DNA of 64,000 nt from Chelatococcus asaccharovorans. GTDB lineage: Bacteria > Pseudomonadota > Alphaproteobacteria > Rhizobiales > Beijerinckiaceae. The stretch is taken from positions 1-64,000 of the forward strand of contig NZ_QJJK01000016.1 of assembly GCF_003201475.1 (NCBI RefSeq), given 5' to 3'. Of the stretch, positions 60,661-64,000 are shown piece after piece. Position 1 is the stretch's first letter. Every line of letters starts with the position of its first letter. A program made the translations under genes and the position numbers. The notes beneath the pieces were generated by a model. It did not search any database. It had not been told where the DNA came from and saw only the letters and a list, made by a program, of their open reading frames with translations.

Positions 60661-60736
60661 GCCGCTTTAGCTCAGTTGGTAGAGCACATCATTCGTAATG
60701 ATGGGGTCGCGTGTTCGAGTCACGCAAGCGGCACCA
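60661..60736 (+). tRNA. tRNA-Thr (anticodon CGT)
   Basis: A complete cloverleaf of 76 bases with encoded CCA. Acceptor arm GCCGCTT/AAGCGGC, D stem GCTC/GAGC, anticodon stem CATCA/TGATG around TTCGTAA (anticodon CGT), T stem GCGTG/CACGC around TTCGAGT. A decayed integrase follows within 20 bases, so the 3' end is the probable attachment site of an island. Confidence 0.95.
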
Positions 60737-60755: not shown

Positions 60756-61420
60756 CTGTTGCCACGGCGCGGGCCGATATTGACCCAACCTTCGCCTCGC
60801 GTGGCGCTCTGACTGCACCGCAGAGGAAATCCTGGGCCGCCTTGACCGAGCCAAAAGCCTTGCGCGGCGCTCTTGCGGGCGATCGATGGCTTCGAGGGGC
60901 AGGCCACGACGACAGCCGCGCTGAAGCTCTTGGCGCTGCTCTTTCCTCGGCCCGGTGAGTTGCGAGCGGCCCATTGGTCCGCGTTCAATCTGGACGAGGA
61001 GGTATGGATCGTTCCGGAAGCGCGGATGAAGATGCGCCGTCCCCATCGGGTGCCTTTACCCAAGCAAGCGGTTGCCATTCTCAAAGACGTGCAGCAGCTC
61101 ACCGGCCATGGCACCCTTGTCTTTCCCTCGATCCGCTCGGTTCTCTGTCCCATGTCGGAAAACACATTCAATGCGGCGCTACGCCGTTTGGGCTTCACCA
61201 AGGACGAGATGACCTCGCACGGGTTCCGCGCGCTTGCCAGCTCCATGCTCAACGAGAGCAGATTCTGGCATCCCGTTGCCATCGAACGGCAGCCGGCCAT
61301 GTGGAGGAAAACAGTGTGCGGCGCGCCTATGCTCGCGGTGAGCATTGGGACGAGCGGGTGAGGATGATGGCCTGGTGGGCCGACCGTGTGGATGAGCTCC
61401 GCGAGGGTAACCTGAAGTGA
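60756..61420 (+). pseudogene. Decayed P4-type tyrosine integrase
   Basis: Remnant of an integrase of the prophage P4/CP4-57 type. Three pieces in two frames are readable. The first (about 60756-60870) has DPTFASRGALTAP and LTEPKALRG. The second (about 60873-61290) holds LLRAIDGFEGQ, the core FPRPGELRAAHWSAF with the catalytic Arg, RPHRVPLPKQA, SENTFNAALRRLGF and SHGFRALASSMLNE. The third (about 61290-61420) has VEENSVRRAYARGEHW with the Tyr region. Two frameshifts and the lack of the N-terminal arm-binding domain (about 200 residues) make it inactive. It starts 20 bases after tRNA-Thr. Confidence 0.85.
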
Positions 61421-61570: not shown

Positions 61571-63277
61571 TCAGAAACCCAAACTTCCCTGCCCGAACAT
61601 CTGATCGACGAGCGGATCTATCTCGGCCCGAGCCTCGTCGTAGCTAGACGCCTGGAGGAGAGAATCCTTGTCCACAGTCACGATCCTGTGACCATCGTAC
61701 ACGACGCCGTGAAGCTTCACAGTGCCGAGCACGAGCTGCGTGTCCTTTGGACGTCTCTCGATGGCGAAGCGGATCATCCGTCGCGCGTTCTCATCGTCCT
61801 GATCCTGCTGCAGCGGCGTATCGAGGATGATCGGGCACATGCACGCCGTGGAGTACTTCGCCACGGTGTGAAGGATCGCATAGTAGTATGCGAGTTGCGC
61901 CCTCGGCAGGTCGCTGCCAGTATCACGGATGGTCATGTCCACCCGGGGCGTAATCCCGGAGACGGCGTTACTCACCTTCAGCTCCTCCGCAAACTCGCGG
62001 AGACGCTCGCCGAAAAATTCCTCGATCTGCGCTCGTCGACCGTGCCGCTCGAACGAACCCATCCTTTCATTCGCCTCGTCGATCTCATGCGCCGCCTGCC
62101 CGATGGCCTCAATCAGCGCGCGGTCCTCGTCCTTGATGGTCACGTCGAGGATTCGCTCGCTCTCGTCCTCAAGCATGTCCCTGAGCTTGATGTCCCCGCG
62201 CGTCTCTTCCAGCAGGCCGTTGATCCGGCCGATTTGCATCTGGAATTCGCCGAGCCGCGCCACGGTATCCTTCGTATGGACCGATATCCGCTCGAGCTCG
62301 GCCGATGAGTCTGTGATGATGGTCCGGCACATCTCCGCATCGGCCAGCAGCCCGAACTTCGCAGCGAAGTCGTTTTCGTGCTCCGTCCCGCAGGTCGGGC
62401 AGATGACCTCACCTTCCAACTTGGTCGCGTAGCGGTAGTCCGCCTCAAGATCGGACAGCGCCGACCGCGCGACTGAAACTTCCTCGACGAGAACCGCCTT
62501 GCGGGACTGGAGAGCCGAAAGCTCGCGGCGGATCTGGGAGTGGCCCTCTTCCAGATGCGTGACCTCTTCCGTTAGCTCGGTGATGTGATCCTCGAAGACC
62601 TCTGGGCGGAAATCCAAGCCAACGGGCCGGCGCCGATCCTGAAGCCTCCGGGCCGCTCTAGCAAGGGCACGCTGCTCGGCGACCAGGTCGGCCTGTTTCC
62701 GAAGCGCCTCGTCACGAACAATCTTGGCCGCATAGAACTCCTTCGGCCGGATGCCCGTGTGGAACTCGACAATGTCCCTCTTGTAGTTGGGGATCATCTG
62801 CACACCGGCGAATGAGATCCAGCTCGACTGCCAGCCAGTGTCCTGATCGACATAGAATGGCATGAAGCTAAATGCTGGCGGTGGCACGACCACCGTCTGC
62901 TGCTTCGTTGCTAGGCGGATACCGAAATCCAGCAGTTCGGCGATCTTCGGGCCGATCTGCGCGGTCACGGCGGTGTGACACCAGAGCATCCTCGCATCGG
63001 CGTCAAAGAGCGCAATGAACTTTCCGTGCTGGACGATAGTGTAGTCATCGGCGTCGACGGAAAAGTCGAGGCGCGCGATCGGGTCGATGGAATTCCAACG
63101 CGGATTTATCTTGGTGGCCGGCGCCGCGAGCGCGCCGTAGATAGATTTGATCAGGCACGACTTGCCCGTGTCGTTTTCGCCGATGACGACGTTTGATCCG
63201 TCATCGAACTTCTCGATCCTTCCCTTCCTTTCCTTCTTTGAAAGAAGCGATAGCCTTCGTAGTTTTAAGCTTTTCAT
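61571..63277 (-). CDS. Short Rad50/SMC-like ATPase with zinc-hook-like motif
   Basis: A 568-residue ABC-class ATPase of the Rad50/SMC/RecF type. The N-terminal P-loop is GENDTGKSCLIKSIYG (about residues 33-48). A coiled coil (about 190-420) is broken by VICPTCGTEHEND at about 286-298, a CxxC resembling a Rad50 zinc hook. The C-terminal Walker B is CPIILDTPLQQDQDDEN (about 485-500) after a DLPRAQLAYYYAILH signature-like helix. Such short ATPases often form multi-gene phage-defence or DNA-processing units with a partner. The partner here is the gene 41 bp upstream. I cannot place it in a named family. Confidence 0.75.
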   Translation of the reverse strand: MKSLKLRRLSLLSKKERKGRIEKFDDGSNVVIGENDTGKSCLIKSIYGALAAPATKINPRWNSIDPIARLDFSVDADDYTIVQHGKFIALFDADARMLWCHTAVTAQIGPKIAELLDFGIRLATKQQTVVVPPPAFSFMPFYVDQDTGWQSSWISFAGVQMIPNYKRDIVEFHTGIRPKEFYAAKIVRDEALRKQADLVAEQRALARAARRLQDRRRPVGLDFRPEVFEDHITELTEEVTHLEEGHSQIRRELSALQSRKAVLVEEVSVARSALSDLEADYRYATKLEGEVICPTCGTEHENDFAAKFGLLADAEMCRTIITDSSAELERISVHTKDTVARLGEFQMQIGRINGLLEETRGDIKLRDMLEDESERILDVTIKDEDRALIEAIGQAAHEIDEANERMGSFERHGRRAQIEEFFGERLREFAEELKVSNAVSGITPRVDMTIRDTGSDLPRAQLAYYYAILHTVAKYSTACMCPIILDTPLQQDQDDENARRMIRFAIERRPKDTQLVLGTVKLHGVVYDGHRIVTVDKDSLLQASSYDEARAEIDPLVDQMFGQGSLGF

Positions 63278-63318
63278 GCGTCTTCTTTCTTAGGCTTCGC
63301 ACAAGTCTCTTGTAGTTC

Positions 63319-64000
63319 TCAAGCTGGGTCCTGCGTATATAGCTCATAGATGATCATTGCCCTCAGTCGTGCTGGTTGGAATGGCGCGAGATAGGTTCTG
63401 CCGACGCTCTCGACGGCGATGAACGTGGCGTCGATGACCTGTACCAGCGTGTCTGCATCACCGAAGCCGGTCGCGACCCGTTCGCGGATCGCACGTCGGA
63501 TGCTGCGCAGGGCCTCGTCCGCCTGGTTCAGCGCTTCCGCACGGTAAACGCTCCATTCGCGCCTCAACAGGAGTTTCTCTGAGATTCCGTAGGTCAGCTG
63601 CGGATCGAGCTCCTCCCATGATGGAAGCCGGACCGCGGCCTTCACCGTGTCCAGCCATCCCTGGACGTCGGCCCGCGTGATGCCCTTCAGGCGGACAACA
63701 TCGCCGAGCGTGGGCGCGTCGCCGGTGAACTTCGAGCGCTTGCGGCATTCGTCCGCGACGAGACGAAACATGGAATCGAGCGGAAAGTCGTCCGGACCGA
63801 CGTGCTTAGTGACGAAGTCATGCAGCTTGCCCTTCATGTGGGCCGAGCTGTCCTGCAGGCTGAGATCCGATCGCTCGAATCCAAGAAGAGCGACCTCCGC
63901 CTCGGTCGCGTCGTCATATTCCCCCTGCACGGCCTCAATCAGCTTCGCGAAGGTGGTGGGCACGCATTTACTGAACTCGAAGGCTCGCTCCGAATGCAGT
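63319..64000 (-). CDS. Unknown partner of the Rad50-like ATPase (5' end outside window)
   Basis: At least 227 residues, open to the window edge; a GTG at 63963 could start a 214-residue form, but the frame reads on upstream as LHSERAFEFSKC and still looks like protein, so the gene is probably larger. The visible part is mostly alpha-helical: LIEAVQGEYDDATEAEVALL, KGKLHDFVTKHVG, MFRLVADECRKR, LNQADEALRSIRRAIRERVA and a final LRAMIIYELYTQDPA. There are no recognised motifs. It lies 41 bp before the ATPase gene on the same strand, so they are very likely co-transcribed. Confidence 0.6.
   Translation of the reverse strand, partial: LHSERAFEFSKCVPTTFAKLIEAVQGEYDDATEAEVALLGFERSDLSLQDSSAHMKGKLHDFVTKHVGPDDFPLDSMFRLVADECRKRSKFTGDAPTLGDVVRLKGITRADVQGWLDTVKAAVRLPSWEELDPQLTYGISEKLLLRREWSVYRAEALNQADEALRSIRRAIRERVATGFGDADTLVQVIDATFIAVESVGRTYLAPFQPARLRAMIIYELYTQDPA

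What the first reader, a model, noticed from the sequence alone, without database searches (positions are those of the whole stretch)
61571..64000. Candidate new defence-type unit: short Rad50-like ATPase plus unknown helical partner
In a tRNA-borne island, an SMC/Rad50-like ATPase with intact Walker motifs and a CPTC hook is encoded with an unassigned helical protein. The layout resembles SMC-ATPase-based anti-phage systems such as Lamassu or ABC three-component systems, but neither protein can be placed in a known type from the sequence alone. A third gene may lie just outside the window.
Basis: partly seen in the sequence, partly recalled or inferred. Interest (0 to 1): 0.65.

Follow-up and report, generated by a model that had tools for sequence, protein, structure and literature searches.

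The report
Known two-gene Lamassu phage-defence system
The two genes at the edge of the window are an ordinary, previously described kind of bacterial anti-phage system (two-gene Lamassu: a DNA-sensing ATPase plus a DNA-cutting enzyme), sitting next to a tRNA gene where related bacteria carry other cargo.

Summary
The genes are real but the system is of a known kind. The ATPase (63277..61571, minus, 568 aa) matches a PADLOC LmuB model over residues 1-561 (E 7.7e-189). The "unassigned helical partner" is the C-terminal part of a protein cut by the window edge; read past the edge it is a 380-aa Cap4/DUF4297 nuclease, LmuA. LmuB's best structural match is the solved LmuAB-DNA complex 9ux7; an LmuA homologue matches the same complex (second by Foldseek; first by VIA). 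The genes lie 41 bp apart with no middle gene, so this is two-gene (type I) Lamassu. All 26 loci laid out, own included, have an LmuA homologue beside lmuB. The Walker B glutamate is Thr here and Ser, Thr or Ala in 23 of 23 aligned sequences, own included, which suggests slow or no ATP hydrolysis. The tRNA-Thr site swaps cargo: a sister species carries Hachiman there. New member of a known kind; low interest.

The parts
61571..63277 (-). lmuB: Rad50/SMC-like ATPase, probable DNA sensor, 568 aa
   Evidence: PADLOC LmuB PDLC00249 E 7.7e-189 over residues 1-561; AF2 model mean pLDDT 87.2, best match 9ux7_A LmuB: Foldseek E 3.3e-19, VIA Z 32.2, rmsd 7.9, 398 aligned
63158..63181 (-). Walker A of LmuB, GENDTGKS, residues 33-40
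   Evidence: G38 and K39 in 23 of 23 aligned sequences, own included
62390..62401 (-). zinc-hook-like CPTC of LmuB, residues 293-296
   Evidence: Cys at 293 in 19 of 23 and at 296 in 19 of 23 aligned sequences, own included
61814..61831 (-). Walker B IILDTP; the catalytic Glu position is Thr487
   Evidence: Position 487: Ser 17, Thr 4, Ala 2 of 23, no Glu; 0 of 16 Glu in a second set that shares own and Rhodobium rows
63319..64000 (-). lmuA: Cap4/DUF4297 nuclease, 3' part only; the gene goes on outside the window to contig 64461 (380 aa), or 64485 from an earlier ATG
   Evidence: nuclease-region residues D55, Q72, K74 in 23 of 23 aligned sequences, E51 in 21 of 23, all coded outside the window
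60661..60736 (+). tRNA-Thr (CGT), the probable insertion site
   Evidence: ARAGORN; matching tRNA stretch in sister genomes G001, G002, G003
60758..61408 (+). integrase remnant: C-terminal part of a tyrosine integrase; first part missing, and the frame appears broken by comparison with G001
   Evidence: Pfam Phage_integrase 3.1e-13 for the open part 60873-61361; a full 397-aa copy lies at the same tRNA in sister genome G001

Best explanation
A two-gene (type I) Lamassu system with a Cap4 nuclease effector, carried in a decayed tRNA-Thr integrative element. LmuB, a short Rad50-like ATPase with hook and coiled coil, probably binds DNA ends or abnormal DNA of invading phages or plasmids as an ATP-held dimer; it then releases LmuA, which oligomerises and cuts DNA, stopping the infection and probably the cell. 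Shown here: gene content, family membership, fold match, conserved pairing, loss of the Walker B glutamate. Transferred from published work on other Lamassu systems: DNA-end or hairpin sensing, LmuA release and tetramer formation, abortive infection. Inferred only: that Thr in Walker B makes LmuB a slow or non-hydrolysing, single-use clamp.
For: PADLOC LmuB 7.7e-189; PADLOC LmuA 7.6e-55 and Pfam Cap4_nuclease 5.9e-26 for the 380-aa partner. Both partners match one solved complex: LmuB to 9ux7_A (Foldseek rank 1; VIA Z 32.2), the Rhodobium LmuA homologue to 9ux7_C (Foldseek rank 2; VIA rank 1, Z 16.9). Profile A3 finds 9ux7_A among PDB sequences at 3.7e-46. An LmuA homologue lies beside lmuB in 26 of 26 loci laid out, own included: 23 by script (gaps -11 to +59 bp), the other 3; for one of the 23 (L031) the name rests on annotation. 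LmuA and LmuB divergence go together (Pearson r 0.92, 21 loci, 0 of 2000 permutations). The closest relative found is in another order (Novosphingobium plasmid, LmuB about 71%, LmuA 61%), against at most 45% in the 397 genomes drawn from its own order, and the 3 other genomes held for the genus lack it: probably acquired horizontally.
Against: No experiment on this system. The LmuA fold was predicted on a 32%-identical homologue (Rhodobium, L019), not on this protein. This LmuA has no sequence match among PDB chains at E 1, and a solved Hachiman chain ranks above 9ux7_C by Foldseek. The correlation of divergences can partly reflect genome relatedness, and by rank it is weaker (Spearman 0.61 on 22 loci).
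Confidence: 0.96

Rival explanations
1. Three-gene Lamassu (type II, DdmABC/ABC-3C) whose middle gene was missed.
For: Same superfamily; type II LmuB chains also match the model (9uxh_F, 9hqx_B).
Against: Only 41 bp between the genes. Next to lmuB lies the integrase remnant, next to lmuA an opposite-strand AlpA-like gene. No middle gene fits in the 23 scripted loci (gaps -11 to +59 bp). The best structural match is the two-gene complex 9ux7. Short ORFs around the pair were not each scanned against LmuC models.
Confidence: 0.02
2. A housekeeping Rad50/SbcC-type repair ATPase with an unrelated neighbour.
For: Rad50-like fold; weak matches to NCBIfam Rad50 models and to an archaeal SMC-related model.
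Against: NCBIfam Rad50 models score 13-25 bits against cut-offs of 700-1087, the archaeal model 33 against 300; patchy distribution (5 of 149 relatives, own included; 2 of 385 in the class, own included); constant nuclease partner.
Confidence: 0.01
3. A real Lamassu system that is decaying or silent because its mobile element is broken.
For: The integrase is truncated. Several relatives are broken: IS66 insertion in lmuB of L021, frame breaks in L025 and L033, and genes in two frames in viral L048, L051, L053 and L066.
Against: Both genes here are full-length and open, with Walker A, hook and nuclease residues kept.
Confidence: 0.15

Closest known systems
Lamassu type I (two-gene LmuA-LmuB; solved as LmuAB-DNA, PDB 9ux7)
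   Same: Two genes, nuclease-type LmuA, Rad50-like LmuB with Walker A, no Glu after the Walker B Asp (9ux7 LmuB reads MDS), fold of both parts.
   Different: Sequence is distant (17% identity over the structural alignment of LmuB); CPTC hook here, CQYC in 9ux7.
Lamassu type II / DdmABC / ABC-3C (LmuACB)
   Same: Same sensor-effector logic and folds; Cap4 effector (PMC12409362 passages).
   Different: Has LmuC; a review says LmuB generally has Gln for the Walker B Glu (PMC10586767, section 9). Here there is no LmuC beside the pair and the residue is Thr.
CBASS Cap4
   Same: Nuclease domain fold (6wam, 6vm6).
   Different: No SAVED match on LmuA in Pfam; the partner is an SMC-like ATPase.
Hachiman HamA and DUF4297-HerA
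   Same: Related nuclease domain fold (8zue, 9c1m).
   Different: The partner is a helicase or HerA ATPase there (PDB titles and recalled), a Rad50-like ATPase here.

Membership tests
Lamassu (any type) | LmuB SMC/Rad50-like ATPase | tested here: met
   PADLOC LmuB 7.7e-189, residues 1-561; 9ux7_A Z 32.2, rmsd 7.9, 398 aligned
Lamassu (any type) | LmuA effector encoded beside lmuB | tested here: met
   PADLOC LmuA 7.6e-55, Pfam Cap4_nuclease 5.9e-26, 41 bp gap
Lamassu type I | Two genes, no LmuC | tested here: met
   No room between the genes; flanked by an integrase remnant and an AlpA-like gene. Short ORFs around were not each scanned against LmuC models.
Lamassu (any type) | Activity against phage or plasmid needing both genes | not testable with these tools
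   Needs an experiment
Lamassu type II / ABC-3C | Middle component LmuC between the two genes | tested here: not met
   41 bp gap
CBASS Cap4 | SAVED ligand-binding domain on the nuclease | tested here: not met
   Pfam finds only Cap4_nuclease at E 0.01, while PADLOC LmuA matches to the C-terminal end. A nucleotide-cyclase neighbour was not searched for by profile.
Rad50/SbcC repair | Rad50 family score above cut-off | tested here: not met
   NCBIfam Rad50 models 13-25 bits against cut-offs 700-1087
Rad50/SbcC repair | Mre11/SbcD partner gene | tested here: not met
   The adjacent genes are LmuA, an integrase remnant and an AlpA-like gene; the rest of the genome was not searched for Mre11

The most novel reading that the evidence does not exclude
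The two-gene Lamassu lineage works without LmuC as a one-shot sensor: LmuB, with Ser, Thr or Ala replacing the catalytic glutamate, locks on DNA in the ATP state without turnover, so a single DNA-end capture irreversibly frees the nuclease.
Probability: 0.3. Interest if true: 0.3.

Novelty: new member of a known kind. Interest (0 to 1): 0.12.

Why it matters
It settles the finding as a known defence type and gives its full effector gene, half of which lay outside the window. Two side points may help specialists: the Walker B substitution is constant in the relatives aligned here, and the tRNA-Thr site holds Lamassu, Hachiman or metabolic genes in different members of one genus.

Tried and rejected
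New defence family: rejected, both proteins match curated Lamassu models. Third gene: not found on reading on. Direct repeat from the tRNA to mark the right border: no second copy of a 13-base word in contig 60001-100000. PHROGs: LmuB matches an unnamed family, LmuA nothing at E 0.001. NCBIfam: LmuB reaches no cut-off, the LmuA part in the window has nothing at E 1. The genome-contig scan gave one locus. The papers on the LmuAB and LmuACB structures are not held; of them I saw only reference entries in other papers and PDB titles. One search translated LmuA in a wrong frame and was not used.

Rows dropped: from the genome-search hits I left out of the pairing count L038, L043, L044 and L045 (three genomes, short or weak matches, two of them with a stop inside); L039 is a second piece of L033; L006 appears to be the same contig as L019 (same length and match place). 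Of 20 Klebsiella plasmid records one was read, of 12 Klebsiella phage records one was read; H29, H43 and the two unlisted plasmid records were not read. L025 had no open lmuB for the script and so is in no LmuB count; L021 and L033 were removed from the LmuB counts because their genes are interrupted. L035 and L036 are near-identical; one search repeats the correlation without L036 (r 0.95 on 22 loci became 0.92 on 21).

Full report
The window is G000 contig C16, bases 1-64000. The finding sits at its right edge, so I read on (L002 = contig 60001-80000).

What is there. The ATPase gene runs from 63277 to 61571 on the minus strand (568 aa). Upstream, on the same strand, the second gene runs into the window edge. 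Its visible part has no Pfam match at E 1, which may be why it looked like an unassigned helical protein. Beyond the edge the frame continues to an ATG at contig 64461 (380 aa), the start that best fits relatives; an earlier ATG lies at 64485. The full protein carries a Cap4 dsDNA endonuclease domain (Pfam 5.9e-26, residues 16-243). The gap between the genes is 41 bp. On the far side of lmuB lies an integrase remnant next to tRNA-Thr; on the far side of lmuA lies an opposite-strand AlpA-like gene.

What it is. PADLOC names the ATPase LmuB (7.7e-189) and the partner LmuA (7.6e-55). An AlphaFold2 model of LmuB (mean pLDDT 87.2) has its best PDB match in 9ux7_A, LmuAB-DNA complex (Foldseek E 3.3e-19; VIA Z 32.2, rmsd 7.9, 398 residues). 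A model of the LmuA homologue of Rhodobium orientis (mean pLDDT 82.6; 32% identical to this LmuA) ranks 9ux7_C second by Foldseek behind a Hachiman chain and first by VIA (Z 16.9, rmsd 5.7, 288 residues). So both partners point to the same solved two-gene complex. This LmuA itself has no sequence match among PDB chains at E 1.

Pairing. I laid out 26 loci: own, 13 from other genomes, 11 from plasmids, 1 from a phage record. A script found an LmuA-size ORF (355-385 aa) directly upstream of lmuB in 23 of 26, at -11 to +59 bp. In the other three an LmuA homologue is beside it too: L024 across the record start of a circular plasmid, L025 with a broken lmuB, L033 with a split lmuB. For L031, one of the 23, the LmuA name rests on its annotation, since it has no BLAST match to this LmuA. 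In 24 viral-contig loci an LmuA profile match lies upstream in 20, some in pieces or cut short; the other four have a 341-343 aa ORF there, and the two of these tested, L063 and L064, match PADLOC LmuA. LmuA and LmuB divergence correlate (Pearson r 0.92, 21 loci, 0 of 2000 permutations; by rank 0.61 on 22 loci); shared ancestry of the genomes can add to this.

Distribution. Genomes with a match at E 1e-3 or better, own counted each time: 5 of 149 relatives, 2 of 385 in the class, 9 of 397 in the order, 8 of 398 in the phylum; the draws overlap, and three of these genomes have only short or weak matches. The three other genomes held for the genus lack it. The nearest relative found, on a Novosphingobium plasmid, is about 71% identical in LmuB and 61% in LmuA, nearer than any in the draw from its own order, which argues for horizontal transfer.

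Motifs (own sequence included). Walker A G38 and K39 are in 23 of 23 aligned LmuB; hook cysteines in 19 of 23 at each position; the Walker B Asp in 23 of 23; the catalytic Glu position is Ser 17, Thr 4, Ala 2. 9ux7 LmuB has Ser there. A review states that LmuB generally has Gln at this place and that Vibrio Lamassu may hydrolyse ATP little or not at all (PMC10586767: passages and section 9 read). LmuA D55, Q72 and K74 are in 23 of 23, E51 in 21 of 23.

Mechanism. Published work on other Lamassu systems (passages read) proposes sensing of DNA ends or hairpins (PMC12904381) and release of LmuA, which forms a tetramer with active nuclease (PMC12409362). I transfer that model by homology. The two-gene layout is called type I and the three-gene layout type II (PMC12409362); LmuC was found in about 10% of the Lamassu systems detected when type II was named (PMC8565338 passages). 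What two-gene systems use in place of LmuC is not shown here.

Island. Comparing sister genomes at the same tRNA-Thr: G001 has a full 397-aa integrase, then about 16 kb of cargo with a Hachiman pair (HamA 4.2e-130, HamB E 0), then an AlpA-like stretch at 87% DNA identity to ours. G003 has a matching integrase stretch (not checked for completeness) followed by genes that read as metabolic by eye. G002 has the tRNA without an integrase match in the 20 kb compared. So this looks like a cargo-swapping site. The AlpA-like and integrase stretches recur several times in this genome.

Verdict.

Noticed in passing
L072 8765-12366 (sister genome G001, same tRNA-Thr site): A Hachiman pair (HamA 4.2e-130, HamB E 0 in PADLOC) occupies the place where this genome has Lamassu, between a full integrase and an AlpA-like stretch.
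   Followed up: partly
L021 7845-10178 (Novosphingobium sp. KACC 22771 plasmid): The closest relative found of this lmuB is interrupted at its hook by an IS66-family insertion (Pfam DDE_Tnp_IS66 1e-104).
   Followed up: partly
G000 contigs C4, C5, C6, C7, C11, C13, C16 and others: The AlpA-like and integrase stretches that bracket this cargo recur in the genome (26 matches with the query L002:300-8000, the query itself and some other gene matches included); three AlpA-like copies lie on C16 alone.
   Followed up: partly
12 Klebsiella phage records (one read, L032) and 20 Klebsiella plasmid records (one read, L028): LmuB relatives occur on Klebsiella phage records and plasmids; the one read of each kind has the two-gene layout.
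   Followed up: partly
window 61814-61831 and the aligned relatives: The Walker B catalytic glutamate is Ser, Thr or Ala in 23 of 23 sequences aligned, not the Gln that a review reports for Lamassu in general.
   Followed up: partly
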